A stretch of 64,000 nucleotides of DNA from Salinigranum marinum (GTDB taxonomy: Archaea; Halobacteriota; Halobacteria; Halobacteriales; Haloferacaceae): positions 1,426,001-1,490,000 of the forward strand of contig NZ_CP100461.1 in assembly GCF_024228675.1 (NCBI RefSeq), written 5' to 3'. Both the position numbers and the translations under genes were made by a program. This document shows positions 10,166 to 63,793 of the stretch, in pieces. The notes beneath the pieces were generated by a model. That model did no database searches. It was not told the origin of the DNA and saw only the letters and a list, made by a program, of their open reading frames with translations. How positions within the stretch are numbered: position 1 is the stretch's first letter; each line of letters starts with the position of its first letter.

Positions 10166-10240
10166 GGGCGCTTAGCTCAGTTTGGACAGAGTGCTTGGCT
10201 TCGGACCAAGTTGTCGCGGGTTCAAATCCTGCAGCGCCCA
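10166..10240 (+). tRNA. tRNA-Arg (anticodon TCG)
   Basis: The acceptor stem GGGCGCT pairs with AGCGCCC and is followed by discriminator A (10240). The D stem is GCTC/GAGT. The anticodon stem CTTGG/CCAAG holds loop CTTCGGA, giving anticodon TCG. The T stem GCGGG/CCTGC carries loop TTCAAAT. CCA is not encoded and there is no intron. Its 3' end is the attachment site of the element that begins here; the integrated element leaves the tRNA intact. Confidence 0.96.
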
Positions 10241-10242
10241 TC
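10228..10242 (+). other. attL, left attachment site of the integrated element
   Basis: The 15-mer cctgcagcgcccatc covers the last 13 bases of tRNA-Arg plus two. An identical 15-mer occurs at 63779-63793. Integration into the 3' end of a tRNA, with duplication of that end, is the standard outcome of archaeal tyrosine integrases. The bases on either side (tccttca-type on the tRNA side) differ between the copies. Confidence 0.85.
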
Positions 10243-10520: not shown

Positions 10521-11681
10521 ATGACAACGCGTCTCCTCCACGTCAGCGACACCCACCTCGGCAACCGCCAGTACGGAAGCGACGTACGGCGCGAGGACTT
10601 CGCCGAGGCGTTCGAGCAGGCCATCGAGTATGCCATCGACGAGAACGTCGACGCCGTCATCCACACGGGTGACCTGTTCGACTCGCGCGACCCCAGTCTT
10701 CCCGACCTGAACCGGTGTATCGATATCCTCGGACGACTCCGAGAAGCCGACATCCCCTTCTATGGAATCGTCGGCAACCACGAGCGTAAGATGGACGACC
10801 AGTACCTCGACCTCATCAACAAGACGAGGACAGCCGAGCGACTGGACAGGAACCCTCGGCTGGTCAACGGCGAAGTCGCCCTCTACGGCATCGATGCCGT
10901 GACGAAGCCCGCGTGGCACGCCGAGGACTTCGAACTCGAAGCGCCGCCCGAGGACGCGTTCACGATCCTCTGTATGCACCAGTTGCTGGATCCGCCCGTT
11001 CCCGAACTCTTCGCCAATCACCCGCTCGGCGACGTCATCGAACGAGTCAACGTCGACCTCGACGCGCTCGCGCTCGGCGACTACCACGAAACCGTTGGGA
11101 CAGTTGAGGAAGGAACACAGGTCTGGTATGCCGGGTCGACCGAGCGGTGCGCGAAGGACGAAGCCTCACCCCGCACGGTGAGTCTCCTCGAAATCGACGA
11201 CGGGGAACTGATTCGACGGGAGAAGGAACTCGACACCCGCGACTTCATCCACATCGACATCGAGTTCGCCGAGGGTGACGGGCACGCGTACGCGGAAGAT
11301 GTCGTCGACCGCCACAACGTGGAGGAGAAGGTCGTCTCTGTTGCGCTCGATGGCGAATCGACGACAGTCACCTCACGCGACGTTCGTGGGGTGGTGATGG
11401 ATCGAGGAGCAGCAGTCTGTCGGGTCAACGATCAGCGTGGCGGCCCAGACCTAGACCTCTCCGGAGGGCCGAGCGGTGACATCGAGAGTGCAGACAACCT
11501 GATCGAAGAGAAGCTCGCCGAGAGCAATCTCAGCAGCGTTGCCGTCGAGATCGAGGAACGCGTCCGGGAAGGGAAAGCCACGCCCACTGGATTCGACGAC
11601 GAGGTCGAGGAGTACCTGATGGAGGCACAAGACGAGGCGTTCGACGAGGATGGCTCCGCCGAAGAGGAGGGAGCCGAATGA
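10521..11681 (+). CDS. mre11: Mre11-like DNA repair exonuclease
   Basis: Calcineurin-like metallophosphoesterase of 386 aa, first gene of a four-gene operon. It would process DNA ends together with Rad50. Metal-binding motifs are visible in order: D10-x-H12 (SDTHLG), G50-D51 (HTGDLFD), G85-N86-H87-E88, then H in LCMHQLL, and G-D-Y-H in LGDYHE. A C-terminal acidic tail probably contacts Rad50. I chose ATG 10521 because the HVSDTHLG strand normally begins at residue 7-8; the frame extends a few codons upstream. The stop overlaps the rad50 ATG (ATGA). Haloarchaea normally carry a chromosomal Mre11, so this is likely an accessory paralogue. Confidence 0.93.
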   Translation: MTTRLLHVSDTHLGNRQYGSDVRREDFAEAFEQAIEYAIDENVDAVIHTGDLFDSRDPSLPDLNRCIDILGRLREADIPFYGIVGNHERKMDDQYLDLINKTRTAERLDRNPRLVNGEVALYGIDAVTKPAWHAEDFELEAPPEDAFTILCMHQLLDPPVPELFANHPLGDVIERVNVDLDALALGDYHETVGTVEEGTQVWYAGSTERCAKDEASPRTVSLLEIDDGELIRREKELDTRDFIHIDIEFAEGDGHAYAEDVVDRHNVEEKVVSVALDGESTTVTSRDVRGVVMDRGAAVCRVNDQRGGPDLDLSGGPSGDIESADNLIEEKLAESNLSSVAVEIEERVREGKATPTGFDDEVEEYLMEAQDEAFDEDGSAEEEGAE

Positions 11682-14600
11682 GAGTCAAACAACTCCACCT
11701 GCAGAACATCCGCAGCTACGCTGACCAGACCGTCGACTTCCCGGAGGGGACAATCCTCATCCACGGCGATAACGGGGCGGGGAAGACTTCGCTCCTGATG
11801 GGGCTGTTCGGTGGCCTCTTCCTCTCAGAGATCCGCAACGTGGGCACCAATTCGTTCAAACTCGACGAATTCGTCCGCCGTGGTGAGACGAAGGGCGTCG
11901 TCGAGTTAGTGTTCGAGGCGGACGGTGTCGACTACACTGTCGAGTGGGAGCTATACACGACCAGCACGCCCAACAGCGCGACGCTGACGTCGCCCGCTCT
12001 TTCGCGCACGGTTTCGGGTATCGGTGATGTCCGCGAGGAAGTACAACGGATCCTCGGCATGGACGAAGACGACTTCGCGAACTCCGTCTACGTCAAACAG
12101 GGCGAGATCGACCGCCTCATCGAGGCGAGCAATCGGGCACAGATGATCGACGGTCTCCTCGGACTGGACGAGATCGACGACTACATCCAGACAATGAAGA
12201 TGGCCCGGCGAGGCGCGGGACGCGTAAGCGACCGAAACAGCGACAACGCCGATAGCCGCCGGCAGGAACTCCGTGAGAAATTCGACCGCAGTGAGGACGA
12301 GTTCGAGGACGAGATCACCGAACTGGACGAAGAGATTCGGGAGACCGAGGGCAAAATCGAGCAAGTAGAGGAGTACTTGGACACACTGCGCGAGACGCGT
12401 GCAGACCTCGGGAGCGATATCAAGAGCTACGAGGATCTCGTCGATCAAAAGCAGGAAACTGAGAACGAGATACACGAGGTAAACGAGAACCGAACCGACA
12501 GACAGCAACTGATCGAGGAGTGTGAGGCGCGCATCGAGGAGTTAGAGGACGAAATCGAGGCGCTCGAAGACGAAATCGAGGATCTCTCCGCGGAAGTCGA
12601 GTACGAAGTCGGGACAGCCACTGCCGCAGAGACCGCACTCGAGGAGGTGCAGAGCGAGGTGCAGGACGCGTCTGTCGAGCAGGCCAGCCGTGAGAAGGAA
12701 CTGGAACGCGCACGCGACGAGATAAACGACCTCAAGAGTGAGCTGGATGACGCCCGTGACGAGCTAGATAGCCTTCGCAAGGAGCGTGAGTCCATCGAGG
12801 AGACGCTTGACGACCGAGCAGATGACCTCGACTCGGCGAACACCGAACTCGATGCCTCGATCGAGGAGCGCAACGAGATGGCCGTCGATTTCCTCCCAGA
12901 CCTCGACTCGGTCGAGACGGTGGATGACTCGACGCTCGACCAAGTCAAGGAGCGGCTGGAGACTCTCGACGACGAGCACGGGGAGGCCGAGACGACGTTG
13001 GCGCAGCGCGAAACGACACTCGGCGAACGAGAGAAAGACCTCGAAGGCGAGCGCGACGAACTGGAAACGACACGCACCTCACTCGACGAGAAGAGAGACG
13101 AACTCGACGACCTTCACACCGAAATCGATACTGCACAAGAGCGAGCCACGGAAGCAACCGACGAGTTCGAGGAGCGTCTCTCGTCACTTGCGGAGCGCGC
13201 AGAAGCACACGGCATCGATCTCTCTGAGGCGGAGTTGGAGTCAACAGCGAGTGAACAGCTCCCCGATAGACTGGACGAGGTCAACGTCGAAATCGACGAG
13301 GTCGGGAACAGTATCGCTGCACTCGACCAGCAGAAGGACACCCTCCTCGCCGATCTCGAAGAGCTGCGGGAACTCGAAGCCGAGAGCAAGTGTCCCCGAT
13401 GCAAACAGCCAGTCAATGAGGCCCATATCGACGAGGAGGCCGAGGAACTGGAATCAGAGATAACCGAGACGCGTGATCGGCTGGAGGCACGACGAATCGA
13501 GCGCGAGGAACTCGAAGAGCAACAAGCGGAGATTCGCGACCTCCGTAGCGACATCAACGACCTCATCGAGTTCCGTCGTGAGGAGGTCGAAGTCGCAGAG
13601 GAGGCTCTCGCCGACCTTCGCGAGCGTGAGGACGAACTCGAGGGAGAAATCGCCGATATCGAAGCGGATATTGAATCGTACGAGGAGGCAATCGACGCTC
13701 TCGAAACAGAGGTCGACGACCTCGCAGCAGAGATCGAAGAACTGGAAACAGAGCGCGACCGACTGGAGACAGAGATAAAGGCCGGTGAGGCGGTCGTCGC
13801 CCAATTCGAGGCAGTCGAAGAAGAGCGTGAGGACGTCGAGGAGATCGCGGCGGAGATCGACGACCTCCGCGAGGAACTCGACGAGCTGGATGAGCGTATC
13901 AAATCGACCGAAGAACAGATCGCGTCGCTCGAAACCGATGTCGACGAACAGACAGAGACTGTCGATGAGCGTCATGTCGCTCTCGAAGAGGTCGAGTCAC
14001 GCGTTGAGGAGCTCGGATCCCACAAGGAGACGGTGAAGAGGATCACTGACCTCTACGACGACATCGAAGACAAGCAGTCTCAAATCGCTGACGAGCGCCA
14101 GAGCATCGACACTCACCGTCAGATGATCGACAGCCTCAACGAGCGCCTCTCCAGTCTACAGGAGGAGCAAGACGAACTCGAAGACCAGCTGGGAGATACC
14201 GATATCGACCAGCTGGAAGACAAGCTCTCACAGGTCAGGGAGAAAATCCAACAGCGGAAGGAGACGCGTGGTGACCTACAGGAGGAGGCACAGACCCTCC
14301 GCGACGAGCGCAGCACGCTCGAGAACGAGCTATCGAACCTCCGGGAGCTGAAACAGCGAATCGACGAGTTCGAGCGGAGAGCCGAGTGGGCGAAAGCCGT
14401 CCACGACGAGCTGAACACCACTCTCAACATCTACGAGAGCGTCAAATCGGAGCTTCGGGAGAAGTACCTCGCGTACATCAACGAGTACACGAACGACATC
14501 TTCCAAGACATCTATCTCAACAGCAGCTACCAGCGGGTGGTCATCACCGAGACCTACAAGGAGCGGAGTGACAGCTACGACTACGACATCCAGTTACTCC

Positions 14601-14950
14601 GCGACGACGGCACGACAGAAGACCCGAGCAACGCGAGCGGTGGCGAACGCGCCATCGTAAATCTCGCGCTCCGAGCGGGAATCTACAAGCTCATCGCCGA
14701 GTTGGAGGGGGGCGACCGCGGCCGGTTGCCTCCGTTCATCCTCGACGAGCCGACGACGTTCCTTGACCAAGGACACGTGGGACAGCTCGAACAGATGCTC
14801 GACCGGATTCGGGACTGGGACGTCCCACAGGTGATCGTCGTCTCGCACGACGAGGCCCTGATTCACGGTGCTGACCACGAGTGCTACGTCGAGATGGACG
14901 AGGCGACGAACACCAGCCGAGTCACCATGCGCTCGGCGGGGGCGGACTGA
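11678..14950 (+). CDS. rad50: Rad50-like SMC-family ATPase
   Basis: A 1090-aa ATPase with a zinc hook. The N-terminal half-domain has Walker A GDNGAGKTS at 30-38. A long coiled coil of about 170-900 is broken in the middle by the hook C572-P-R-C575. The C-terminal half-domain has the ABC signature SGGER at 987-991 and Walker B ILDEP (D1023-E1024), followed by a D-loop and an SHDE switch. Rad50 dimers tether DNA ends and regulate Mre11. Start and spacing are set by the 4-base overlap with mre11. Two bases separate its stop from the next gene's ATG at 14953. Confidence 0.95.
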   Translation: MRVKQLHLQNIRSYADQTVDFPEGTILIHGDNGAGKTSLLMGLFGGLFLSEIRNVGTNSFKLDEFVRRGETKGVVELVFEADGVDYTVEWELYTTSTPNSATLTSPALSRTVSGIGDVREEVQRILGMDEDDFANSVYVKQGEIDRLIEASNRAQMIDGLLGLDEIDDYIQTMKMARRGAGRVSDRNSDNADSRRQELREKFDRSEDEFEDEITELDEEIRETEGKIEQVEEYLDTLRETRADLGSDIKSYEDLVDQKQETENEIHEVNENRTDRQQLIEECEARIEELEDEIEALEDEIEDLSAEVEYEVGTATAAETALEEVQSEVQDASVEQASREKELERARDEINDLKSELDDARDELDSLRKERESIEETLDDRADDLDSANTELDASIEERNEMAVDFLPDLDSVETVDDSTLDQVKERLETLDDEHGEAETTLAQRETTLGEREKDLEGERDELETTRTSLDEKRDELDDLHTEIDTAQERATEATDEFEERLSSLAERAEAHGIDLSEAELESTASEQLPDRLDEVNVEIDEVGNSIAALDQQKDTLLADLEELRELEAESKCPRCKQPVNEAHIDEEAEELESEITETRDRLEARRIEREELEEQQAEIRDLRSDINDLIEFRREEVEVAEEALADLREREDELEGEIADIEADIESYEEAIDALETEVDDLAAEIEELETERDRLETEIKAGEAVVAQFEAVEEEREDVEEIAAEIDDLREELDELDERIKSTEEQIASLETDVDEQTETVDERHVALEEVESRVEELGSHKETVKRITDLYDDIEDKQSQIADERQSIDTHRQMIDSLNERLSSLQEEQDELEDQLGDTDIDQLEDKLSQVREKIQQRKETRGDLQEEAQTLRDERSTLENELSNLRELKQRIDEFERRAEWAKAVHDELNTTLNIYESVKSELREKYLAYINEYTNDIFQDIYLNSSYQRVVITETYKERSDSYDYDIQLLRDDGTTEDPSNASGGERAIVNLALRAGIYKLIAELEGGDRGRLPPFILDEPTTFLDQGHVGQLEQMLDRIRDWDVPQVIVVSHDEALIHGADHECYVEMDEATNTSRVTMRSAGAD

Positions 14951-14952
14951 GG

Positions 14953-16233
14953 ATGGACTCGGAGGCAATCGGTGCCGTCCGCGAACTGTTCGCCGAAATC
15001 GACGCCGCCGTCCCACGCGACCGAGAGTCACAGGCCGAACACGCTCGTCGGCTGTTTGGCCTGTTGGAGCGTGAGGGTGGTATCGTCGAGGCCGTCGACG
15101 AACCAGCCTTTCACCGCACGCGTCTCGCCGAACTGGGCACGTGGATGGATGACCCGTGGGATGGGGCTACCTACGGAGTCGACGCCAGCACGACGCGTCC
15201 GCTCGAATACAACAACGGGCTGGTCGTCGACGCAGCCCATGCGAAAACGGGGGTTACCGGCGGGAGTGCCGATCGAACGCTGGAACGGTCTGGCCGGGTC
15301 GTTGGTGTCGCATATCTCGATGACGGCGACAGTACCCTTCATGAGAAGACCCTCGAAGGAGAGTACGTCACGGCGGATCTAGTGCGATTTCCCGAGGCGA
15401 CCGAGGAGCCCCGGAACATCTCCAAATCCGTCGCCGCGGTAGCACAGCGATTGAGTGAGAGCCGACAGGCAGTCGAGTCGTTGGATGCTCTGGATGGTGC
15501 GCTGTTCCTCGATGGATCCGTCCTGCCGCTGGGTATCGTCTACTGGGTACTGCTCGACCATGCTGGCGGCCGGTCTCCTGCTGGGTCGTGGAACTTACCC
15601 GCAGAAATCGTCGGCAACTACATCGAGGTCATCGACCGGCAGTACGAGCGCGAACAACCCGTGCTCGGAGTCGTCAAGACCTCCTCGATGTCGCAGGTTC
15701 TCGACGCGCTCCGCGAGAAGATCGAACAACACGACGTCCGAGGCGACAACGGGAGACTGCTCGACGTCCCGTGGGTACGTGATCATCAGTTCATGGCCGA
15801 GGTGCTCCGATTTGACGATCTGGATTACCTCACGTACACGTCGTGGTTCGTAAGTGCCGGACAGGAGATCAACGGACAACGGTACGAGCTGCTTGAGCCA
15901 CTGGCCGACCGGCTGGAACACGGAAGTCCGTCAGACTACCGCCGAGCGTTCTGCTTTGTCCGGCTGCCGAAGACGGGCGACCTCCTCCGAGTCGAAGCTC
16001 CGTATCTGATGGTACAGGACAGCGAGATGCGCGAACGCGTTCAACTGAAGGCCTTGAAAGAGATCGCACAGCAACAGGGCGTCCCTCGCGCCATCGAGCG
16101 TGCCGATAAACTCGCTCGCATCAGCCGGGAGAACCGGCGGAAGATTCGTGATCTGATCGAGCGCACCGAAGCAACGTACGACCACAACTGGGACGGTCGC
16201 TGGCGCGACCTCGACGACGACACTGACCTATGA
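14953..16233 (+). CDS. nurA: NurA-domain 5'-3' nuclease
   Basis: A 426-aa RNase-H-like nuclease of the NurA family, which acts with the HerA translocase in DNA end resection. Visible catalytic-site segments are YGVDAST (D77) early in the protein and ALFLDGS (D187) in the middle. A VVKTSSM segment at about 240 and FVRLPKTGDLLRVEAP near 340 also fit the family. The length is normal. The stop overlaps the herA start by four bases (ATGA at 16230-16233). It is the third gene of the operon. Confidence 0.9.
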   Translation: MDSEAIGAVRELFAEIDAAVPRDRESQAEHARRLFGLLEREGGIVEAVDEPAFHRTRLAELGTWMDDPWDGATYGVDASTTRPLEYNNGLVVDAAHAKTGVTGGSADRTLERSGRVVGVAYLDDGDSTLHEKTLEGEYVTADLVRFPEATEEPRNISKSVAAVAQRLSESRQAVESLDALDGALFLDGSVLPLGIVYWVLLDHAGGRSPAGSWNLPAEIVGNYIEVIDRQYEREQPVLGVVKTSSMSQVLDALREKIEQHDVRGDNGRLLDVPWVRDHQFMAEVLRFDDLDYLTYTSWFVSAGQEINGQRYELLEPLADRLEHGSPSDYRRAFCFVRLPKTGDLLRVEAPYLMVQDSEMRERVQLKALKEIAQQQGVPRAIERADKLARISRENRRKIRDLIERTEATYDHNWDGRWRDLDDDTDL

Positions 16234-18122
16234 CCGACGACGTAGACAAATTACTCGACGACGATCCCTTCGCTGATGAACAGTCCGCAGACCAAACTGA
16301 AGAATCCGAGTCTGCTGAGGAGCCCGATTCGGACTCCCCCGATGACGTGGACGCGTCCATCCCCGAGAGACAAGTCGCGAACGAAACCTCAGAACCAAGC
16401 GATGATGAAGTGGGGCACGTTCTCGCGAGTGAAGAGATTCGTGTCGCCCGAGACGAGTACAACGTCAACGCGTTCGTGATGACTGGACAGCGAGACGCTG
16501 TTCGCGTCGGCGACTACGTCGAGATTCCGTACCCAGTCGACGACAATCTGCTCTTTTCGGTCATCGATGGACTACGGTACGAGCCGTACACGGAACTCGA
16601 CGACAAGTCGGACACGCACAACCAGATCAGCAAGAGCCGCGAACTAGACGAGTCCGAATTCGTGCTGGTCGCCGAACTTGACCCTCTCGCAATCCTCCGA
16701 CAGCGGGCGGGCGGAGAACTGGAGCGCGGTATCGTCAACCGTATCCCGAAACCGAACACGTCGGTTAGCCTCTCGCGGGACGAAGATCACCTCCGGACGG
16801 GGCTGAACATACCTAAGGAGGGTGTCTTCGCCGGCTATCTCTCGGTCGGCGGAGATGCGATGATTATCGATGACGAGGAGTTCGCGTACTACATCCAGAA
16901 TCCGGGTATCGACCCGGATACCGGAGAGCCCGAAGACGGAGAACCAGCCGTATTCAGGCACGCGCTCGTCGCCGGATCAACTGGTACGGGGAAGACGCAC
17001 TTTACGAAAAATCTCCTCCGTCAGTTCGTCGACAGCAAGCGATACCCGGTAGAGGTGAGTGCCGATGACGATGTCCAGCACAGCCGGCTCAACACCGTCA
17101 TCTTCGACCCCGAAAACGAATACTGGGAGATGCGGGAGGATAACCCGAGCCTGACCGACGAGCAACGTCGGAAACTCCGTCGACAGGGCGTCGAGTTTGA
17201 CGGAGTCGACGACCTGCAAGTGTTCGTCCCTGAGGTCGACCGAACTCGAAGCCCGTCGACCTCGGAAAGCATCCCGCTGACGATCCCGTTCTCCGTCGTC
17301 GAGCACGAGCCTCGGCTGTTGATGCCGTTCGCCCAGATGTCGGATGTGACACGCGGGGCGATCACCAGTTGCATCGAGGCGTACTTCAGCTGCTTCGACG
17401 AGGACAACGCGGAGTGGCCGTCACGGTCGGTCGGCGAGCCACGTTACAGAGACTTCATCGACTTCCTCGAGGAGCACGACGACGCCGAGAGTCGGCTTCG
17501 AGAGCGGAACAGCATTGGCGACGGAACGTGGGACGCGGTGTGGAGACGCGCCAAGCAGAGCGAGTACTTCGACGTGTTCGACGGTGGCACGAACCCGTTC
17601 CCGGAGATGACGGATCAACTCTTCCGCGAGGGGCAGGTTACAGTCATCCCCACGAGCCACCTCCGCGGAGAGAAGGAGTATCTCGTCGTGCTCTCGCTGC
17701 TCTCGTACATCATCGAGAACAAGATCGACGACTTCGACGTCGATCCAGCTGTCAAGCACACACCGATGCTCGTGGCGGTGGACGAGGCTCACAACTACTT
17801 CTCACGGCCGTCCAACGTTCGGGAGGCATACATTGTTGGACGAGCACGCGAGGCCGCCAAGCAGGGGCGGAAGGACAAATTGGGGCTGATGATGATTACG
17901 CAGAACCCGGGCGACATCGACGGGGACATCCTGAAACAGATCAACACCAACGTGTTCCTGCAGCTGCGTGACGAGGTTATTGAGGATGTCCCCTCGGTTC
18001 CACGGAGTTATCGGAAGGACATTCCGAAGTTCGCGAAGGGCCAAGCCGTCATCAAGGCACCGGACGTCGAGGCCGTCGAGGTTGTGGGGCTCCCGTACTG
18101 CCTGACGCGTCACGATAGTTGA
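16230..18122 (+). CDS. herA: HerA-like DNA translocase/helicase
   Basis: A 630-aa FtsK/HerA-family hexameric ATPase. An N-terminal acidic segment of about 70 residues precedes a HAS-barrel-like domain (residues 70-200). The ATPase core has Walker A GSTGTGKT at 249-256, a Walker B MLVAVDEAHNYFS at about 512-524, an arginine-rich AREAAKQGRK helix, and sensor segment MMITQNPGDID. HerA drives NurA along DNA. It is the last gene of the Mre11-Rad50-NurA-HerA operon; no further gene follows on this strand for 1.3 kb. Confidence 0.93.
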   Translation: MTDDVDKLLDDDPFADEQSADQTEESESAEEPDSDSPDDVDASIPERQVANETSEPSDDEVGHVLASEEIRVARDEYNVNAFVMTGQRDAVRVGDYVEIPYPVDDNLLFSVIDGLRYEPYTELDDKSDTHNQISKSRELDESEFVLVAELDPLAILRQRAGGELERGIVNRIPKPNTSVSLSRDEDHLRTGLNIPKEGVFAGYLSVGGDAMIIDDEEFAYYIQNPGIDPDTGEPEDGEPAVFRHALVAGSTGTGKTHFTKNLLRQFVDSKRYPVEVSADDDVQHSRLNTVIFDPENEYWEMREDNPSLTDEQRRKLRRQGVEFDGVDDLQVFVPEVDRTRSPSTSESIPLTIPFSVVEHEPRLLMPFAQMSDVTRGAITSCIEAYFSCFDEDNAEWPSRSVGEPRYRDFIDFLEEHDDAESRLRERNSIGDGTWDAVWRRAKQSEYFDVFDGGTNPFPEMTDQLFREGQVTVIPTSHLRGEKEYLVVLSLLSYIIENKIDDFDVDPAVKHTPMLVAVDEAHNYFSRPSNVREAYIVGRAREAAKQGRKDKLGLMMITQNPGDIDGDILKQINTNVFLQLRDEVIEDVPSVPRSYRKDIPKFAKGQAVIKAPDVEAVEVVGLPYCLTRHDS

Positions 18123-18282: not shown

Positions 18283-19041
18283 TCAGTCCCGCAGGTCGTA
18301 GACGATTTCTTCGTACTCCTCGTCCATCTCACCAATTGCCGCACGAAGGAGTGTCTCGTTCGTTTCGTCGTGGGCACTGGCGACTCGCTTAATATATGGA
18401 TCCTCTACGTAGATCCCATCACCAAGCCTACCCTCATCATCCTTGTGCGTCTCACAGTACAGTCGAACGAGATTGATTGCCTCCTCACGGGTGTCTCCGA
18501 CCCGTTTCTCCCAATCCTCCGGGACGACCTGCGATTTGAACGGTGACGCCTGTCTCTCTGTGATCCGAGGATCCAAGATGTAGACGTCCCGGAGTACGTC
18601 AATAGGTTCCTCGCGCCATCTTTCACTGACGCGTTGAATGACTTCCCAATTTTCGGAGATGACGTGTTCATTTTCTACGACCCGGTCGGCGACTTCTCTG
18701 ACGGCTTCCTCGTACGACTCTGCCCCTGCCACTTGTTGTTCATCAACGACCTGTGCGAGCTCGGCCTCTTCATCATCAAGCTCGTTTAGTCGGTCACGCA
18801 TCTGTTTCAGCTCTTCCGACGCCTCCTCGATGTCGTTCCGAAGCATGGCTTTTTGACGCCGGATTTCTTCGAGTTCGTCTCTTGGATCATCGAGCGTGAC
18901 GTCGCGAATGTCTTCCAACACCACTTCGTGGAGATACTCCTGCTTGCTATCATATTCGCTCTGTTCGATGAAGCGGTCGAGTTGCTTCTGTTGGATCTCG
19001 GGTAGTCTGAACCCGATGATCTTCCATTCGTTCTTTGCCAT
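18283..19041 (-). CDS. coiled-coil protein with possible ribbon-helix-helix start
   Basis: A 252-aa product starting at ATG 19041. A TATA-like ttttattc (minus strand, 19066-19075) lies about 27 bases upstream, supporting a leaderless start there rather than further out. Residues 1-45 (basic strand IIGFRLP, then a helical segment) resemble a ribbon-helix-helix DNA-binding start. Residues 55-100 are a strong coiled coil. The remainder is mixed and unrecognised. It is convergent to herA and faces the PLD gene, so it may regulate one of them. No assigned family. Confidence 0.65.
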   Translation of the reverse strand: MAKNEWKIIGFRLPEIQQKQLDRFIEQSEYDSKQEYLHEVVLEDIRDVTLDDPRDELEEIRRQKAMLRNDIEEASEELKQMRDRLNELDDEEAELAQVVDEQQVAGAESYEEAVREVADRVVENEHVISENWEVIQRVSERWREEPIDVLRDVYILDPRITERQASPFKSQVVPEDWEKRVGDTREEAINLVRLYCETHKDDEGRLGDGIYVEDPYIKRVASAHDETNETLLRAAIGEMDEEYEEIVYDLRD

Positions 19042-19283
19042 CGTGGCGCCCCTCCCTATACCGGTGCTGAATAAAAGTGCAAACACCGAGAGGGTGTGTT
19101 AGCTAATGAGTATCGAACCGTTCGGAACACTGTGTCCTCTTCAGAACTATCAACCGCCCCTCGCGGTGAAGTTACGGAGTGAGGCGATACGATCGAGGAC
19201 GCATCAAATTCACGTCCTCGGTCGGGGGAGTCGCTAGTCGTCCACGGCCCTCGTCATCGGGAGGAAGACAACAAGCGTGTTAC

Positions 19284-19471: not shown

Positions 19472-21613
19472 ATGAACTGGTCGACGACCATCAATCTGGG
19501 TGGATTCGGGAACTCCGCCGGGATGGAGTGGCAGACCGTCAAGAGTTGGGAGTCGTTCACCAACTTCTTCGAGGGAGCCGTACATATAGACGCGGTGACT
19601 TACTGTGAGTCCCCCGGTCTTCTCCTCGACCTGTTCGATCAACGTGGGTCACAATTGGAGACGATGGACGTTCTCGTCGGCAACCGAGAGGAGTATCAAT
19701 CCTCGGTCAACGACGTGAACGTCGCTCGGCAACTCGAACAGTACTACCGTGACGACAAGCTCATTATCCGGCTGAAGAACCGGAAAGTCGTCCACTCGAA
19801 GCTCTATCGAATCGTCAAGGAGGACGAGGAGGTCACGCTCATCTCAGGAAGCGCCAATTTCTCCTACAACAGCTGGAAGAACCAGACCAACAGTGTCGTC
19901 GTGTTCGATACGGAGGTGGGATCCCAACTCGACCAACAGTTCCAGCAGTGGATCGACGACCATCGTGATAACTACGCAAACGAGATCTTCATGGAGGACT
20001 TGGTGAAGGAACTGGAGCAACTTGACGACGAGGAGGAGAAGGAGCGACGAATCGAACTATGGATCGACAATCGCGACACTCAGCTCTCGGAACAAGGGGA
20101 GTTTCACTCCAACGTCGGCAACGAGTTGGAGAAGCTTGGTGGCGAGGTCGACCGCGTGGTCGGGGTAACTGACGACCCCGACGAGGCGGACGAGGTTGTC
20201 ACAATCCAACACGAAGAGGTCGTGCCAGAAGACGAGGAGACCGGATCCAGCTCGGATGGATCAGGCGATAACGCCGAGAGTACTCCGGAAGGAGTCACCG
20301 CAGCAAGGACGCCCGAGTACACCATCACGCTCTCGACCCAAGGATACGAGAACGATGGCTACGTCAACCAGATGAAAACCGACCTCAAGCGCCGAGGCGC
20401 AGACGTCGGCTCCGACGCCATCACGACACCCATCGAGGGCTACACGAACTACCTACAGACACGCTACGACGTGCCAAAGATGTGGGTGGACGAGGGTGCA
20501 GGACGCGTTCACCTCCAGCACGGAGAACACCACCGAATTCTCACTGCCGACCACGATCCGGATCCAGCGGTACTCGATGCCGCTCTCTCGAATATCGAGG
20601 ACTACGTGGAGACGGTCGATAGGTGGGGAGAAACGAACAACAGCCGAGCGGTGAAGGCCCACATGTACGAGGGGATACTCTACGGGCTGTGGGCACCCTT
20701 CGTCAATCTGTACGCTCGTCAGTTCTATGGGAACGTGACCCTCGACAACGCCCTACAGTATCTGTACATCTTCGGCGAGTCCGACGCCGGCAAGGACATG
20801 TTCACCGAGTTCGTTCTGCGTCTCGTCTCGGACGACCTCGTTACGGGTGGGGCAGATGCCGACAACGTGGGGAAGAACCAGATTCGGGCACTTCGGAACA
20901 TCGACACCGTGTTTCCCTACATGATCTCCGACATCTCGAAGCAGAAGATCGAACGCATCGACACCCTGCGGAACTTCTGGCAGGACTCGTGGCATCCGAC
21001 GAACGACATCGCCTACCCGTCGATCATCTTCACGAGTAACGACTCCCGGCCGAATGACTGGTTCCGCAACCGGACGAAGATGCTTCACTTTGACGTGGCG
21101 TTCCCCTCAAATCCCGAGGATGAGGGGTTCTACGAGGCACAACAGGATTTGAACGAGATCCTCGACGAGCGCAATCCGATATTCGCCTACGTCTCTCGTC
21201 GTATCCTCGAAAACGAGATGTACCTCGATGCGGCTGGGACAGTCGAAGACGTTCGACGCGTCTTCCTCGACTTCTACGATCAGGCCGGCAGAAAGATCCC
21301 GGAGTACTTCCCAAGGGAGCCTGCGAATCGCCGGTACAATATCGGGAAACGAAAGTGGCGTCAGGCGTACGAACGGGGCGATGTCGAATTCGAGCGTCGT
21401 GAAGACCAGCTCATCGCCGAGTTCAGTCTGGAGCCACATGAACTCTACAGCTACCGCAAGACGCTCCCGACGAAGATGCGACCCGAGAAGAGCGGTCGGA
21501 ACATTATCGTCAAGAATCCCGACGACTTCAGCGAGTGGCTCAATCTAAACGAACTGACTGCCCCTGACGACGCTGATACCGAAGGTGGGTTCCTGAGCCG
21601 CCTCTTTGGGTGA
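19472..21613 (+). CDS. PLD-like nuclease fused to a P-loop ATPase domain
   Basis: A 713-aa two-part protein. Residues 1-170 form a phospholipase-D-type nuclease-like domain with one HxK motif (H108-S-K110) followed by SGSANFS near 127. An acidic linker with low complexity spans 220-280. Residues 430-600 form a P-loop domain. Its Walker A-like sequence GESDAGKD (435-442) ends in Asp instead of Ser/Thr. A later SIIFTSNDS resembles a sensor-1 asparagine of AAA+ or superfamily-3 viral helicases. A leaderless start at ATG 19472 is supported by the TATA element at 19441-19448. It follows the herA operon and may be a partner effector. I know of no named family with this exact order. Confidence 0.7.
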   Translation: MNWSTTINLGGFGNSAGMEWQTVKSWESFTNFFEGAVHIDAVTYCESPGLLLDLFDQRGSQLETMDVLVGNREEYQSSVNDVNVARQLEQYYRDDKLIIRLKNRKVVHSKLYRIVKEDEEVTLISGSANFSYNSWKNQTNSVVVFDTEVGSQLDQQFQQWIDDHRDNYANEIFMEDLVKELEQLDDEEEKERRIELWIDNRDTQLSEQGEFHSNVGNELEKLGGEVDRVVGVTDDPDEADEVVTIQHEEVVPEDEETGSSSDGSGDNAESTPEGVTAARTPEYTITLSTQGYENDGYVNQMKTDLKRRGADVGSDAITTPIEGYTNYLQTRYDVPKMWVDEGAGRVHLQHGEHHRILTADHDPDPAVLDAALSNIEDYVETVDRWGETNNSRAVKAHMYEGILYGLWAPFVNLYARQFYGNVTLDNALQYLYIFGESDAGKDMFTEFVLRLVSDDLVTGGADADNVGKNQIRALRNIDTVFPYMISDISKQKIERIDTLRNFWQDSWHPTNDIAYPSIIFTSNDSRPNDWFRNRTKMLHFDVAFPSNPEDEGFYEAQQDLNEILDERNPIFAYVSRRILENEMYLDAAGTVEDVRRVFLDFYDQAGRKIPEYFPREPANRRYNIGKRKWRQAYERGDVEFERREDQLIAEFSLEPHELYSYRKTLPTKMRPEKSGRNIIVKNPDDFSEWLNLNELTAPDDADTEGGFLSRLFG

Positions 21614-22484: not shown

Positions 22485-22530
22485 ATAGGCGATGTTGACT
22501 GGTTATATATTATTGCTTATAATAGTTGCT

Positions 22531-23859
22531 GTGGCTTTCGAAGAACATCAGATCGAGTTCGTTCCAATTGACCGGCCGACCCTCAATCCACGAAACGAGG
22601 AGGTGTACTCTGACCGTGAGGACTTGAGCGACTCTTTCGTCGAAAGTATCCGGAAGGACGGCATCCTCCAACCATTAGTGGTAGCGGCCGACTGGCTACT
22701 CATATCGGGTCACCGACGTCTTGAGGCCGCTAAGAGGGTCGGATTCGACGAAGTCCCGGTGATCATGAGGGAGTTTACAGGCGAGCTTGAACGCCTCGAA
22801 GCCCTTGTTCAATACAACCTCCACCGGGAGAAAACGTACAGCCAGAAGATGCGGGAGGCAGAATTACTGGCCGAGGTAGAAGCCGAACGAGCGAAACGAC
22901 GGCAGGGCACCCGTACAGACCTTCGGGAAAATCTTCCCACAAGTGGTCAACGTGAGTACGGACGTACCCGTGATAAGGTCGCTTCGGCAGTCGGGCTGGG
23001 TAGCGGAAAGACGTACGAAAAGGCTCTTGCCGTATGGAACGCAGCAGAGTTGGGCGATCCGGTCGCGAAAGGTGCGGTCACGCGTCTCGACACAGGTGAC
23101 AGTTCTATCGAGAGCGCATGGCGGAAAGTCCGCAAACGGCATCCCACGGACGGCACTCCAAACACGAGAGAGACAGCAAAGAGCAACGGCGAACAGATAG
23201 ACCCCAACGACCTAATCCTATCCGCGCACCAAGCTCATAACGACGTTGTGTTCAAAAAAATCCTTGACCTCCACGTCGAGCGAGGATCTGTTGTCGCCGA
23301 CGTGACGTTCAACGAGGGGACGTTCTGGAAGCAGGTACCCCACGACGCGTACACCATACTTGCGACCGACATTAATCCGAAGTACTCTCCGTACTGTGAG
23401 GCGGTTGTCGATTATCGTGACCTACCTTACGAGGACAACAATATTGACGCAGTCGTACTGGATCCACCGTACGCGGAGGGCTTCTATTCCCCATCGGAAC
23501 CATCTGACGAGGATGACTACTGGATCAAAGAGCGATACGGGGATGGGTCGAGAAGTGAGTTCACTTACCATGAGGCAGTCATCAACGAGTACGTTCTGGC
23601 TGGTCGGGAAGCCCACCGAGTTCTGGCGGACGATGGTGTCCTAATCGTCAAACTCCAAGACGAGGTGTCCCGTAACCAGCAACGACTCACGCACGTCGAA
23701 GTGACCAACATCTACGAGCAACAACTCGGGTTCACTGCAGAGGATCTATTTGTAGTCGTGAGGCCGGACAGGCCCACCTTCTCGAACATCAAGCGTCAGC
23801 GACGAGCGAGAAAGAACCACTCGTACTTCATCGTTTACAAGAAGCAGACCGTGAGCTAG
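22531..23859 (+). CDS. ParB/Srx-like domain fused to a DNA methyltransferase
   Basis: A 442-aa protein. Residues 1-100 form a ParB/sulfiredoxin-like domain with the GHRRL motif (about 58-62) and a KDGILQPLVV strand-turn. The C-terminal half is an amino-methyltransferase. Motif IV is D311-P-P-Y314 and the motif-I region is DVTFNEGTFW, a form seen in methylases of haloviruses and plasmids. Substrate is N6-adenine or N4-cytosine; the site is unreadable. GTG 22531 fits the TATA at 22503-22510; an upstream ATG at 22492 would add a hydrophobic 13-residue leader. No matching restriction gene is adjacent, so it may be a solitary modification enzyme. The stop overlaps the end of the convergent next gene. 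Confidence 0.85.
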   Translation: MAFEEHQIEFVPIDRPTLNPRNEEVYSDREDLSDSFVESIRKDGILQPLVVAADWLLISGHRRLEAAKRVGFDEVPVIMREFTGELERLEALVQYNLHREKTYSQKMREAELLAEVEAERAKRRQGTRTDLRENLPTSGQREYGRTRDKVASAVGLGSGKTYEKALAVWNAAELGDPVAKGAVTRLDTGDSSIESAWRKVRKRHPTDGTPNTRETAKSNGEQIDPNDLILSAHQAHNDVVFKKILDLHVERGSVVADVTFNEGTFWKQVPHDAYTILATDINPKYSPYCEAVVDYRDLPYEDNNIDAVVLDPPYAEGFYSPSEPSDEDDYWIKERYGDGSRSEFTYHEAVINEYVLAGREAHRVLADDGVLIVKLQDEVSRNQQRLTHVEVTNIYEQQLGFTAEDLFVVVRPDRPTFSNIKRQRRARKNHSYFIVYKKQTVS

Positions 23860-25211: not shown

Positions 25212-26375
25212 TCAGTTACTGCAACACTCAATCCCAATCAGCCGTCTACCGTCGATTATCACAGGGTTCTCTGCCGTCAGCTCCCGACCACACCAGTCAC
25301 ACGCCGGATCCTCCATGACTCCAGAGCCGACTGCATACGGATACGACACTGTCGTTGAGGCGTCGTCGAGTCGGAGTGAAAGTTCGAGGTCGCCCCGTTC
25401 GTACATGACCGACGTCGCAGTAACGGGCCGAATCCGAACGGTGAGGGAGTGACGTTCTCGTATTTCTGCACGTTTCTCCGGAAACCCTCTCTCGATCTGG
25501 ATCGTCAGATCGTCCAGCTCCGATCTGACATCGTCCAGTTCGGCACGAAGCTCCTTGCGCTTCCGAAGTGCCTCCACGCGTTCGGTCTGTTCAGCAGCCG
25601 TATCGATGGTGTCTGTCACCTCGGCGATTCGGTCGGTCAACGAGTCGATGTCCTCCTCTAGCTCGGAGCGTCGTTGACGTGCGAACTGCCTGTACTCGTC
25701 GAGTTCCACATCAGCGGCACGCGTCGCCCGCTCTCGCGTGTCCCGGACAACCGGAGCTATTGCGTCCTCGGCGTGGTTACGAGCGGTGTCGAGGCTATCC
25801 AACAGCTCTCGCTCGTCGACGTTCCGGCCTTCAGAGGGTGTCTGTCGGTCGCTTCCCTCGGTCAGGTCGAGATACGTCTCGGCCAGTCGAGGACGTCGCT
25901 CGTCGTCGCCGAGGTCGACAGCGACAGCGTGGAGATCTTCAGTCTGGTACTCGCTGACCGTCTCTATCCCGACGTGGAAGAGCGTACAGAGCGCCCGTCG
26001 GTCGTAGTACGGCGTGAACTTCTGGTCGGTGACCTCGGCCGGCCCCTCTGTGATCCACGGTGGGAGTCGGGGTTCACAGTCCTGCCATGTGAGAGCGACC
26101 GACCCGACTGGGGTTCGATTTGCGGCTTCGTCGATTAGTCGTTCGACGAAGGCGCTCTCTGGGGCGACGGCGAGTGCTCCCTCGCCGACCTCGGCCGGAT
26201 CGTTTGCAATCTCCAGAACTGCGCCGTCCAGCTCGAGGTCAGTCTCGGCGTCGTCCGGGAGAGTGACTCTCCATCGCCGTCCCTCCTTCGTGATTTCGGC
26301 TCCGAGGCAGGTTAGATACGCTTCGGTGAGCCGCTCGACTGCCCGCTCCGTCACGGCCATCGCGGCATCAGTCAT
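25212..26375 (-). CDS. coiled-coil protein with C-terminal zinc site, partner of the SNF2 helicase
   Basis: A 387-aa protein whose start overlaps the SNF2 helicase stop by eight bases, so the two are translationally coupled. Residues 1-140 are a mixed alpha/beta domain. Residues 190-290 are a long coiled coil (repeated Glu/Arg/Leu heptads). The last 35 residues hold C-D-W-C and a terminal C-C pair, consistent with one zinc ion. Its position implies it works with the helicase, perhaps as a specificity or clamp subunit. I do not know a named family. Confidence 0.75.
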   Translation of the reverse strand: MTDAAMAVTERAVERLTEAYLTCLGAEITKEGRRWRVTLPDDAETDLELDGAVLEIANDPAEVGEGALAVAPESAFVERLIDEAANRTPVGSVALTWQDCEPRLPPWITEGPAEVTDQKFTPYYDRRALCTLFHVGIETVSEYQTEDLHAVAVDLGDDERRPRLAETYLDLTEGSDRQTPSEGRNVDERELLDSLDTARNHAEDAIAPVVRDTRERATRAADVELDEYRQFARQRRSELEEDIDSLTDRIAEVTDTIDTAAEQTERVEALRKRKELRAELDDVRSELDDLTIQIERGFPEKRAEIRERHSLTVRIRPVTATSVMYERGDLELSLRLDDASTTVSYPYAVGSGVMEDPACDWCGRELTAENPVIIDGRRLIGIECCSN

Positions 26376-28119
26376 CGCTGGCCCCCAGATCGAATCCCTC
26401 GAACACGCCGCTGTTGAAGTCGTTCAGCTTGTCGGCGAGGTCACGCTGTTCCTGCAGGTCGATCGCCATCGCGTCGAAGTCGTTCTCCAACTCGACCTCT
26501 GAGCCCGCGTTGACCAGCCGATCGAACACGTCGTCCTCGAAATTCCGGCCAGTCTCTTCCAGCCGGGTCAGTATCTCGCTCAGCTCGCCGACGGACTGCT
26601 GGAACAGGTCGATTTTGTGGTAGAGCCGCTCCAGCACGTACTCCTCGATGGTATCCTTGAGCGCGATGTTGAAGACGTAGACTTCCCGATCCTGTCCGAT
26701 ACGGTGGATCCGCCCGATGCGCTGCTCCACCTTCATCGGATTCCACGGGAGGTCGTAGTTGACCATCACGTTGCAGAACTGGAGGTTGCGGCCCTCGTTC
26801 ATCGCGTCCGTCGAGACGAGCACACCGCCTTCCTCCTCGAACCGCTTGACGATCTCTTCCTTCTGGTCGCTGGTGTGCCCACCGTGGAATGGGTGGGTCG
26901 TGTATCCCGCCTCGTCGAGCCGATCAAGTATCGCCTGCTGGGTGGCTCGGAACTGCGTAAAGACGATTACCCGGCCTTTGTCGACTCGTTCGCGGGCCTC
27001 CTCGGTGATATGCTGGACGCGTTCCAACTTCGTCGGGGTCTCGACAGCGTCAACGCGTTCGAGGATCTGTTCGAGCTGGTCAGTGTGGGCTGGCTGCTTC
27101 CCCTCCTCCAGTTGTTTCTCGACCGTCCCTCGGAGCGCAGCTGGGCTGCTGACGACTTCCTTCTGGAGAGTCATCAGCACCAGCTTCTGTCCCCCGCTCT
27201 CGCTGTACGCCGCTCTCACGTAGTCTGTGACGGACTGGTAGAGGTCGCGCTCGGCTGGCGACGGATCGAAGGTACGCGTCGTCACGTTGCGCGGCGTGAA
27301 GTCGATGTCCGTCTCCTCTCGGCGATTGCGGATCATCACCTTGCGCAACCGGTTCTGGAGTTCGTTGCGATTGACCAGCGTCTCCTGCGAGGAGTTGATG
27401 AAGTAGTGGTGGAACGACTCACGCGTCCCGAACAGACCCGGCCGCAGGAGAGAGACAATATTGTAGAGGTCGGTGACGTCGTTCTGTATCGGCGTCGCCG
27501 TGAGGAAGAACGCGTAGTCGTACGAGAGCTTCTGGAGGAGTTCGTAGCGGTCGGTGTCCTCGTTCTTGACGTAGTGGGCCTCGTCGAGCACGAGGACGTC
27601 CCAGTCGCGACTGAGGACGGTCGTGCGGTTGCTCTCACTCTTCGCGGTGTCTATGCTGGCGATGATGTGGTCGTGGGCGTCGAAGCCGGCGAAGTCGTCG
27701 TCGTAGTTGCAGGTAAAGTCGAGACCGAACTTCTCCAGCATCTCGGCCTGCCACTGCTGGGCGAGCTGTGCCGGCGTGAGGATCAACACGGCGTCGTCGG
27801 TGCCGCGATAGTGCATCTCCTTCAGAATCATCCCGACCTCGATGGTCTTGCCGAGGCCGACCTCGTCGGCGAGGAGGGCTTTGCCGTCCATCTCGAAGAG
27901 CGCCCGGTGGGCGGCGTTCACCTGATGTTCGAGGAGCTTGACGTTCTCCTCATCGAGGTGCGAGAGCGAGCGGAGTTCGGTATCGGGCTGGCCAGCCTTG
28001 AGTCGGTTGGCCTGTACCGTGAGGAGGTGGTCGCCGAGGGACGACGCGTCGGCGAGACGGTCGGTCAGATCGGTGTCCTCGTGGCGGATTTCGACGTCCA
28101 CGAGGTCGTCTGTCGTCAT
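26368..28119 (-). CDS. SNF2/RapA-type superfamily 2 DNA translocase
   Basis: A 583-aa SF2 ATPase of the SNF2 family. Motif I DEVGLGKT is at 85-92, motif II DEAH at 179-182, motif III LTATPIQND follows, and the second RecA domain contains VFTQFRAT and the motif VI stretch QRIGRIHRIGQ. It lacks a nuclease domain; the C-terminal 80 residues are helical. Such stand-alone translocases are core parts of DISARM-class-1 and DUF499/DUF1156 defence systems. A decayed copy of its first 31 codons lies at 35635-35727, next to the PIN/partner genes, which suggests its original position in the operon. Confidence 0.93.
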   Translation of the reverse strand: MTTDDLVDVEIRHEDTDLTDRLADASSLGDHLLTVQANRLKAGQPDTELRSLSHLDEENVKLLEHQVNAAHRALFEMDGKALLADEVGLGKTIEVGMILKEMHYRGTDDAVLILTPAQLAQQWQAEMLEKFGLDFTCNYDDDFAGFDAHDHIIASIDTAKSESNRTTVLSRDWDVLVLDEAHYVKNEDTDRYELLQKLSYDYAFFLTATPIQNDVTDLYNIVSLLRPGLFGTRESFHHYFINSSQETLVNRNELQNRLRKVMIRNRREETDIDFTPRNVTTRTFDPSPAERDLYQSVTDYVRAAYSESGGQKLVLMTLQKEVVSSPAALRGTVEKQLEEGKQPAHTDQLEQILERVDAVETPTKLERVQHITEEARERVDKGRVIVFTQFRATQQAILDRLDEAGYTTHPFHGGHTSDQKEEIVKRFEEEGGVLVSTDAMNEGRNLQFCNVMVNYDLPWNPMKVEQRIGRIHRIGQDREVYVFNIALKDTIEEYVLERLYHKIDLFQQSVGELSEILTRLEETGRNFEDDVFDRLVNAGSEVELENDFDAMAIDLQEQRDLADKLNDFNSGVFEGFDLGASDD

Positions 28120-30810: not shown

Positions 30811-31071
30811 CTATGACCGAACTGCGAGCGACACCACGTCCTCAAGCATAGTCTGCTCCAGAATCAGCTCCCGGTACCCATCGTCGACCAAATCCGTGGG
30901 GTTTGTCGTCGCCAGCTCCGTTATATAACCTGTCTCCTCGTCAATGTCGGGATGGTTCTCGTCACGTTCCCAGATTTCGGCCTGCTCGACGAGCTGTATC
31001 CAATTTTCAATCACATTCTGCTCAATATCCCGTGCGAGGTCTCGGAGACGCCCGACAAGGGCGTCTACCAT
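30811..31071 (-). pseudogene. truncated duplicate of the PIN-domain gene at 33990-34652
   Basis: Eighty-six codons correspond to the last third of the PIN protein at 33990-34652: LVGRLRDLARDIEQN, then ELATTNPTDLVDDGYRELILEQ and the same C-terminus. It lacks the N-terminal catalytic part and has an internal loss of about 21 codons covering the LDAHDVA acidic motif. Nucleotide identity remains high. Its ATG overlaps the TGA of the OLD gene (TGATG), so it could still be translated. It marks one edge of the cargo block holding the OLD nuclease and its neighbour. Confidence 0.8.
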
Positions 31072-32771: not shown

Positions 32772-32944
32772 TGGATGATTCCTTGAAATCCACTCAACCA
32801 GTAACCCAGAATGTTTCGGTGAATCCAAGTGCTACAGGCATGCTTGGCGGGTAGATGCAGTAGACTGGCTACTTTGCTCGGTATAGTTACTTCACATGAT
32901 ATTCAGCCCAAAGAGACTATGAGCGGAGAGGGTAGGCCCTATGT

Positions 32945-40146: not shown

Positions 40147-40317
40147 TGATGATAACCTACCCTGTTGGTGGGAGGGTTGTATAGCTTTCCGCTCCGGGCA
40201 ATCGGACTCATATCGTATATCTGACCATTCCAACTGGATTATCCCCTTCAGTTCACTATTGTCTCCGAGAATCACCACAGCAGTTATGTTAGTCTTGACT
40301 AGTCACCTGACAACAGA

Positions 40318-40605: not shown

Positions 40606-40751
40606 CACTGCCTCACCCCATCGAAAGACATGAATCACTGAAGAGTTGGTGTATCAGTAGCCCGTGATCTGACCATGATGGAAGTTGTTAATTTCGAGAA
40701 CCAACTGTCCACGTCAGTGGTTATAATACAGGGCCGAGAGGATGCCACTCC

Positions 40752-42887: not shown

Positions 42888-43028
42888 TTGGCAGGATATT
42901 TGTGTGGTTTCCAACGAGAGGTCATCACCGACTACCCTGCCTGATTCGTCTTGTGGCCAAGTGTGTCGGGCGAAGTTGATAATTTGACCACAGTATTTAA
43001 GCGATACACATACACCACTCTTGATAAC

Positions 43029-62275: not shown

Positions 62276-63373
62276 CTACTCGTAGTCGTCCTCGAAGTAG
62301 TCGCGTAAGACCTCGGCCTTCTCGTCTTCGTCGAGTTCGACGTAGTGTTCCTCCAGCACCTTCTCGCTGCAGTCGACCCGGCGACTGATGGCCCACGGTG
62401 GGATGTCGTTCTCCATCATACGCGTCAACGCACCCGAGCGGAGAGCGTGGGGGGCCATGCTGGCCGGGCAACCGTACGCCTTGCTCTTCGACTGCGCAGC
62501 CGAGCACGTTTTAGGGTCGCGATCTTCGCAGGGACAGCCGTCTTCGGTCAGGCATGGACGCGTGACCGAGTAGCAGAGATCGCGGAGATACTGCTTGTGC
62601 CGCCGTCCCGTGCCGTCTTCGTTGCAGAAGAGCGGCGTCCGACCATACTCGTCTTCGACGTTGTCCGGGCGATCAGGCCGCTCAAGGAAGTCCTCGATGG
62701 CGTCGACGACAGTTCCGTGGATAGTGACCGTGCGCTCGCCGACTTTGCCGTTCTTGAGTGTGGTGCCCTGATCGGGACGGTGGCGAAGCCGGATGAGGTT
62801 CTCGTCGAAGTCGATGTCATCGACGTCGATACCGTGGGCAGCACCGATGCGCATCCCCGTCGACCAGATTACCTCGTGGAAGATGTGGCGCTCACTGGCC
62901 CACGCGTACTTGCGAAGGTGGTCACGGATCTGATTGCCGCGTTCAGTCGGGAGGTGTTGCGACCGTTGTCCCTCCCCATCCTCGAGGTTCGGTGACTCCG
63001 CAAACTGGTGCATCCCGTCCGGGAGTGCGCCATACGATTCGAGGTTCCGGAAGAACACGCGAATCGTGTCCATCTGGGTTTTGAGCGTCGTTTTGGCAAC
63101 CTCGTTGCTCCGCTTGAGCTTGTAGTCCTGAATGTGGTGACGCTTGAGTTCGGTGGTCTTGCAGATGCGAGGCCCCTCGTCTTCTTCGGGCTCGAGAAGA
63201 GCCTTTGGCGTGAGCCACTCGATGAAGAGACTGAGACGGTACTGGTGAGACTCGATAGTAGCCCGGCGGCGGTTGTTGGCGCGCTGAATATCGGCGTGCT
63301 TCTCAAGCGCACTGTCCCACGTGAGCGGGATGAGATCGCTGTCGCGGCTGCCGTGCGGGCTGTCGATGCTCAT
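62276..63373 (-). CDS. tyrosine recombinase/integrase of the island, 365 aa
   Basis: A full-length tyrosine integrase. The N-terminal part (about 15-150) includes a core-binding-type helical domain. The catalytic domain shows arginine I in STGMRIGAAHGI (about 170-181), H-x-x-R in APHALRSGAL (about 308-317), and the tyrosine in EEHYVELDEDEK (about 344-349). It lies 406 bases from attR and points inward, the common position for the enzyme that inserted the element. A C-terminal acidic stretch follows the tyrosine. Confidence 0.92.
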   Translation of the reverse strand: MSIDSPHGSRDSDLIPLTWDSALEKHADIQRANNRRRATIESHQYRLSLFIEWLTPKALLEPEEDEGPRICKTTELKRHHIQDYKLKRSNEVAKTTLKTQMDTIRVFFRNLESYGALPDGMHQFAESPNLEDGEGQRSQHLPTERGNQIRDHLRKYAWASERHIFHEVIWSTGMRIGAAHGIDVDDIDFDENLIRLRHRPDQGTTLKNGKVGERTVTIHGTVVDAIEDFLERPDRPDNVEDEYGRTPLFCNEDGTGRRHKQYLRDLCYSVTRPCLTEDGCPCEDRDPKTCSAAQSKSKAYGCPASMAPHALRSGALTRMMENDIPPWAISRRVDCSEKVLEEHYVELDEDEKAEVLRDYFEDDYE

Positions 63374-63778: not shown

Positions 63779-63793
63779 CCTGCAGCGCCCATC
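63779..63793 (+). other. attR, right attachment site
   Basis: The 15-mer cctgcagcgcccatc is identical to the 3' end of tRNA-Arg at 10228-10242. It has no complete tRNA around it and lies at the end of the AT-richer island. Beyond it, 63794-64000, no gene is recognised. Confidence 0.85.

What the first reader, a model, noticed from the sequence alone, without database searches (positions are those of the whole stretch)
10521..18122. Complete Mre11-Rad50-NurA-HerA operon on a mobile island
Four genes overlap or nearly touch (4-base, 2-base and 4-base junctions) in the order known from thermophilic archaea. Haloarchaea normally carry only chromosomal mre11-rad50. On an island this suggests that DNA end-resection machinery is used as a mobile nuclease, for defence or for the element's own processing.
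Basis: partly seen in the sequence, partly recalled or inferred. Interest (0 to 1): 0.65.

Follow-up and report, generated by a model that had tools for sequence, protein, structure and literature searches.

The report
Mobile DNA-end nuclease set near Argonaute
A salt-loving archaeon carries, on a DNA element inserted into a tRNA gene, a second and clearly different set of DNA-end-trimming enzymes, and across many relatives such mobile sets repeatedly sit beside an Argonaute-based immune system, which suggests that repair-type machinery has been recruited for defence against foreign DNA.

Summary
The four intact, tightly packed genes mre11-rad50-nurA-herA ("MRNH") are confirmed at 10521-18122. 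They lie on an integrated element: a 15-bp repeat of the tRNA-Arg 3' end recurs at 63779-63793 beside an integrase. Trees separate mobile Mre11 and NurA from chromosomal ones. The mobile set occurs in 34/292 genomes across families, on plasmids, and in 0/3 congeners, nearly always as the complete block.
The new result is its company. The gene at 19472-21613 belongs to the AgaP (PLD nuclease) family of published haloarchaeal Argonaute-PLD (APAP) immunity. Within 10 kb, 12/36 mobile MRNH sets have AgaP or Argonaute, against 0/94 control defence loci. Conversely, about 29 of 41 haloarchaeal Argonaute loci sit beside an end-processing machine: MRNH, a second Mre11-Rad50-NurA-HerA type, AddAB-like, or Mre11-Rad50. 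No held paper describes this. Best reading: a mobile end-processing nuclease used in defence, often coupled to Argonaute/AgaP. Coupling is inferred; the window has no Argonaute (nearest about 77 kb away).

The parts
10166..10240 (+). tRNA-Arg (TCG), integration site
   Evidence: ARAGORN
10228..10242 (.). attL core CCTGCAGCGCCCATC (tRNA 3' end + TC)
   Evidence: 15-bp exact repeat
10521..11681 (+). mobile Mre11 (386 aa)
   Evidence: Pfam Metallophos; phmmer to Mre11 1ii7 E 2e-18
11678..14950 (+). mobile Rad50 (1090 aa, zinc hook CPRC)
   Evidence: Pfam AAA_23 E 3e-21; motifs
14953..16233 (+). mobile NurA nuclease (426 aa)
   Evidence: Pfam NurA E 7e-15; mobile clade separate from chromosomal NurA
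16230..18122 (+). mobile HerA translocase (630 aa)
   Evidence: Pfam DUF87 E 6e-12; PDB HerA matches
18283..19086 (-). protein of unknown function between herA and the AgaP-family gene
   Evidence: no family above its cut-off
19472..21613 (+). AgaP-family protein: N-terminal PLD (HKD) nuclease + C-terminal P-loop region (713 aa)
   Evidence: Pfam PLDc_2 and RE_NgoFVII; invariant HSK...GSxN and GK; the related L159 copy matches the N. pellirubrum AgaP locus at E 7e-85; fold match of the PLD part to NgoAVII R protein and Nuc
62276..63373 (-). tyrosine integrase beside attR
   Evidence: Pfam Phage_integrase E 6e-12
63779..63793 (.). attR core CCTGCAGCGCCCATC; element spans about 10.24-63.79 kb

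Best explanation
The operon is a horizontally mobile DNA-end-processing machine (Mre11-Rad50 end binder/nuclease plus NurA-HerA helicase-nuclease), distinct from the host's repair genes, that serves in anti-invader defence, often together with the haloarchaeal AgaP/Argonaute system. Proposed working: Mre11-Rad50 recognises and opens free, hairpin or protein-blocked ends of foreign replicons (or breaks made by AgaP/Argonaute); HerA then drives the duplex into NurA, which degrades it, destroying the DNA and possibly yielding fragments that load Argonaute. Shown here: gene integrity, integration into tRNA-Arg, separation from the chromosomal copies, sporadic spread, statistical linkage to AgaP and Argonaute, and the presence of AddAB-like or other Mre11-Rad50 sets in its place at sister Argonaute loci. 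Inferred: biochemical activity, defence function, and cooperation with AgaP/Argonaute. In the window the candidate partner is an AgaP-family gene 1.35 kb from herA; the nearest Argonaute is about 77 kb away (with its own AgaP and AddAB-like genes), and another lies on contig C4.
For: Second set: chromosomal mre11-rad50 at C1:2102 kb and nurA/herA at C1:895-898 kb. Mobile NurA and chromosomal NurA on opposite sides of a branch with support 100; mobile Mre11 95, chromosomal 91. 34/292 genomes, 0/3 congeners, on plasmids. Four-gene block complete in nearly every locus. Within 10 kb 12/36 MRNH have Argonaute or AgaP versus 0/94 DUF1156-methylase defence loci, Fisher 4e-8; 20 kb 13/36 vs 5/94, 3e-5; the label changes 8 times on the NurA tree, so it is not one inherited cluster. 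The Argonaute is CbAgo-like (E 5e-86) with an invariant D-E-D-D tetrad. Argonaute loci: MRNH 8, type B 4, AddAB-1 12 more, AddAB-2 4, Mre11-Rad50+AAA 1, of 41. AgaP/Argonaute immunity is experimentally shown for N. pellirubrum genes (PMC11442185).
Against: Two thirds of mobile MRNH sets, including three of the window's four closest relatives, have neither AgaP nor Argonaute within 10 kb. The window has no Argonaute. herA and the AgaP-family gene are not one operon here (an opposite-strand gene lies between), and in the sibling locus L043 the AgaP gene is inverted. Many AgaP-family genes (about 45 of 72) have no Argonaute nearby. PADLOC has no model for this set. The N. pellirubrum APAP genes work in H. 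hispanica without an MRNH in their locus, so MRNH is not strictly required.
Confidence: 0.55

Rival explanations
1. Stand-alone RecBCD-like defence nuclease: MRNH destroys invading linear DNA on its own, and its nearness to AgaP/Argonaute only reflects shared defence islands.
For: Most MRNH loci lack AgaP/Argonaute; other defence genes (OLD nuclease, KTSC, DUF262, McrBC, Hma-like) lie nearby. HerA-NurA degrades both strands and a defensive role has been proposed for it (PMC12977600).
Against: Control defence loci do not show the AgaP/Argonaute association; Argonaute loci sit beside several unlike end-processing machines, which plain clustering does not predict.
Confidence: 0.25
2. Element-borne replication or repair aid: the operon helps the integrated element or plasmid process its own ends or recombine.
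For: It lies on integrated elements and plasmids; Mre11-Rad50 and HerA-NurA are recombination proteins.
Against: Not found in phage records or viral contigs; no replication gene family recurs among the neighbours, whereas AgaP and Argonaute do.
Confidence: 0.12
3. Spare housekeeping repair set that boosts resistance to radiation or desiccation.
For: Same gene set as archaeal repair operons.
Against: Host already has both complexes; absent from 3/3 congeners and about 88% of sampled genomes; deep separation from chromosomal proteins.
Confidence: 0.08

Closest known systems
Archaeal HerA-Mre11-Rad50-NurA repair operon (Thermococcus, Sulfolobus)
   Same: Same four protein families in one operon; motifs intact.
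   Different: Order may differ (nurA-herA adjacent here); extra to chromosomal copies; mobile; neighbours are immune genes.
APAP system (long-A pAgo + AgaP PLD nuclease, Natrinema pellirubrum; PMC11442185)
   Same: AgaP-family gene near the operon; some sister MRNH loci hold both an Argonaute and an AgaP gene.
   Different: The paper mentions only a helicase gene near some loci, not Mre11/Rad50/NurA/HerA; the window lacks an Argonaute.
RecBCD working with Argonaute (CbAgo in E. coli; PMC10164581)
   Same: End-processing helicase-nuclease cooperating with a related Argonaute at DNA breaks.
   Different: There host RecBCD is supplied in trans; here end-processing genes of several types are neighbours of Argonaute genes.
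HerA-based phage defence (HerA-Sir2, HerA-DUF4297)
   Same: HerA motor plus effector enzyme.
   Different: Here HerA is paired with NurA and Mre11-Rad50; no Sir2 or DUF4297.

Membership tests
Archaeal Mre11-Rad50-NurA-HerA end-resection set | All four families present and intact in one operon | tested here: met
Archaeal Mre11-Rad50-NurA-HerA end-resection set | Gene order as in thermophiles | tested here: inconclusive
   nurA-herA adjacent here; T. kodakarensis locus tags read from a paper leave two genes between them; only one thermophile compared
Archaeal Mre11-Rad50-NurA-HerA end-resection set | Vertical, housekeeping inheritance | tested here: not met
   34/292 genomes, 0/3 congeners, clades separate from chromosomal copies
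Archaeal Mre11-Rad50-NurA-HerA end-resection set | Coupled helicase-nuclease activity | not testable with these tools
   needs purified proteins
APAP (Argonaute-PLD) system | AgaP-family PLD protein | tested here: met
   window 19472-21613 and the L159 copy fall in one family by profile search; L159 matches the N. pellirubrum AgaP locus at E 7e-85. The HxK-GSxN spacing is short here, unlike about 50 aa in N. pellirubrum
APAP (Argonaute-PLD) system | Catalytic long-A Argonaute in the same operon | tested here: not met
   no pAgo match in the window; nearest at C1:1523587, about 77 kb from the AgaP-family gene. The window is therefore not filed as an APAP system
Known PADLOC defence systems | A model set covering the four genes | tested here: not met
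   only generic HerA and SMC-like matches
Integrated element at a tRNA gene | tRNA-end direct repeat and integrase | tested here: met

The most novel reading that the evidence does not exclude
Haloarchaeal Argonaute immunity uses an interchangeable DNA-end-processing module: Mre11-Rad50-NurA-HerA (two types), AddAB-like helicase-nucleases (two types) or Mre11-Rad50 with a large AAA protein fill the same genomic slot, supplying the break processing or guide DNA that Argonaute/AgaP need; the window carries one such module together with an AgaP-family gene and may serve Argonautes encoded elsewhere in the genome.
Probability: 0.42. Interest if true: 0.8.

Novelty: new variant of a known kind. Interest (0 to 1): 0.6.

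Why it matters
How archaeal Argonautes obtain guides, and how they tell invader from self, is open. In E. coli, CbAgo, the closest solved relative of this Argonaute family, works with RecBCD at breaks. If haloarchaea encode a dedicated, swappable end-processing machine beside Argonaute, guide supply and target destruction can be tested genetically by deleting one neighbouring module. It would also show the archaeal repair set Mre11-Rad50-NurA-HerA recruited to immunity as a mobile unit.

Tried and rejected
Only Mre11-Rad50 copy in the genome: rejected. Virus-encoded set: no NurA relative in IMG/VR or phage records. PADLOC naming as a known system: only generic HerA/SMC matches. Mobile type outside haloarchaea: in a phylum sample of 197 genomes the matches outside the class scored like chromosomal NurA. 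The NurA profile against PDB gave nothing at 0.01, so NurA active-site residues were not mapped on a structure. Structure of the AgaP-family protein: mean pLDDT 61; only the PLD part is trustworthy and the C-terminal fold stays unassigned. The control set (Hma methylase) is itself part of a large cluster, which depresses its 10-kb count, so the 20-kb test is the fairer one. An attR search with 25 bases of the tRNA missed the repeat; the 15-base core was found by k-mer comparison.

Full report
Observation. The four ORFs are real and intact: mre11 10521-11681, rad50 11678-14950, nurA 14953-16233, herA 16230-18122, joined by ATGA overlaps and a 2-base gap. Pfam assigns Metallophos, AAA_23, NurA and HerA domains, and the catalytic or ATP-binding motifs of Mre11, Rad50 (with zinc hook) and HerA are present. 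NurA has invariant acidic positions in the family alignment, but these were not mapped to a structure.

Setting. GC falls from about 0.70 to about 0.60 around tRNA-Arg(TCG) 10166-10240. A 15-base exact copy of the tRNA 3' end (CCTGCAGCGCCCATC) recurs at 63779-63793, 0.4 kb from an integrase (62276-63373), and again at 80962-80976 (window numbering continued beyond the window), close to a second integrase-like gene at 79770-80810; shuffled sequence gave at most 12 matching bases. So the operon is the first cargo of a roughly 53.5-kb integrated element, with a second element behind it.

Second set, not the only set. The genome has a separate chromosomal mre11-rad50 (C1:2102 kb) and a separate chromosomal nurA and herA (C1:895-898 kb). 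A NurA match occurs in 287 of 292 class genomes, mostly at 29-35% identity to the window protein, so the premise that haloarchaea lack NurA/HerA is wrong, although a review states that H. volcanii lacks them. The mobile type occurs in 34 of those genomes (36 loci), spread over many families, on four plasmid records at over 50% identity and in none of three congeners. Mre11 and NurA trees split mobile and chromosomal proteins cleanly. The window's nearest relatives come from other genera and families, as expected for transfer.

Conserved block. In nearly all mobile loci examined the order mre11-rad50-nurA-herA is intact. A few have a split herA or lack genes at the locus or contig end.

Company. 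Clustering the neighbours showed one most recurrent extra partner, the gene family of window 19472-21613, in 10 of the mobile loci. It is a PLD nuclease with a C-terminal P-loop region. A related copy (L159) matches the N. pellirubrum locus that encodes AgaP, the PLD partner of the experimentally tested Argonaute-PLD (APAP) system. Another recurrent neighbour was identified as Argonaute (PADLOC pAgo E 4e-298; closest solved structure 6qzk, which I know as CbAgo) with an invariant catalytic tetrad in the eight rows aligned.

Statistics. Within 10 kb 12 of 36 mobile MRNH sets have Argonaute or AgaP, against 0 of 94 DUF1156-methylase defence loci from the same genomes (Fisher 4e-8); within 20 kb 13/36 versus 5/94 (3e-5). 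Genomes with MRNH also hold Argonaute more often than expected (13 vs 4.7, p 1e-4). The neighbour label changes eight times on the NurA tree and partner types are mixed on the AgaP tree, so this is not one inherited cluster; near-identical or similar loci (G003/G065; G083/G279/G061/G242) still reduce independence.

From the Argonaute side. Of 41 Argonaute loci in the sample, 8 lie within 15 kb of mobile MRNH, 4 inspected ones beside a second type (Mre11-Rad50-NurA'-small gene-HerA), 12 more beside an AddAB-like trio (UvrD helicase, PD-(D/E)XK nuclease and a third, AddB-position protein without a Pfam match), 4 beside another AddAB-like pair and 1 beside Mre11 with a large AAA protein; the last arrangement, with Rad50, is also on a Salinigranum plasmid. 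That is about 29 of 41. More distant relatives of the AddB-position protein (59 loci) are never near AgaP or Argonaute. Only one locus (G254:C34) has both MRNH and AddAB. The published paper notes only a helicase gene near some ago-agaP operons, and no held paper contains both 'prokaryotic Argonaute' and Rad50.

Reading. The most economical explanation is a mobile end-processing machine used in defence, often with AgaP/Argonaute. In the window, AgaP is near but Argonaute is not: the nearest is an Argonaute matched only over its C-terminal part (about 560 of 895 aa) about 77 kb downstream, with AgaP and AddAB-like genes, and a full one lies on contig C4. Whether the window's MRNH works with either is unknown. 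Stand-alone defence is the main rival.

Limits. The sample is 292 drawn genomes; there is one control family; neighbour genes were called by a simple ORF score; there are no expression or biochemical data.

Noticed in passing
window 26368-28119, 37489-46289: SNF2 helicase, DUF1156 methylase, DUF262 and DUF499 ATPase genes resembling the Hma candidate defence system.
   Followed up: partly
window 46730-49746: McrBC-like restriction pair.
   Followed up: partly
window 31071-32828; L047, L049, L050, L052, L054, L098: OLD-type nuclease gene in the window; in several other MRNH loci a 70-aa KTSC-domain gene and an OLD-type gene lie directly after herA.
   Followed up: partly
L057, L058, L059, L066 (also L164, L167): An MBL-fold protein of about 800 aa is divergent from mre11 in these MRNH loci; relatives of it also lie beside ago-agaP on Natrinema and Halomontanus plasmids.
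   Followed up: partly
own genome C1:1489.8-1507.0 kb (L013, L162): Second element in tandem at the same tRNA site, with membrane and pilin-like genes and its own integrase-like gene.
   Followed up: partly
L157, L264, L268, L269, L142, L144, L149: A second Mre11-Rad50-NurA-HerA type with a small extra gene, near AgaP or Argonaute.
   Followed up: partly
L070, L073, L074, L265, L272: A DUF2797 protein of about 300 aa sits immediately upstream of one Argonaute clade.
   Followed up: no
L158 (C1:1523587-1525266): Argonaute copy in this genome matches only the C-terminal two thirds, so it may be truncated.
   Followed up: no
window 22492-23859: ParB-N domain fused to a DNA methyltransferase; a 50% identical relative lies near the MRNH locus L073.
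   Followed up: no
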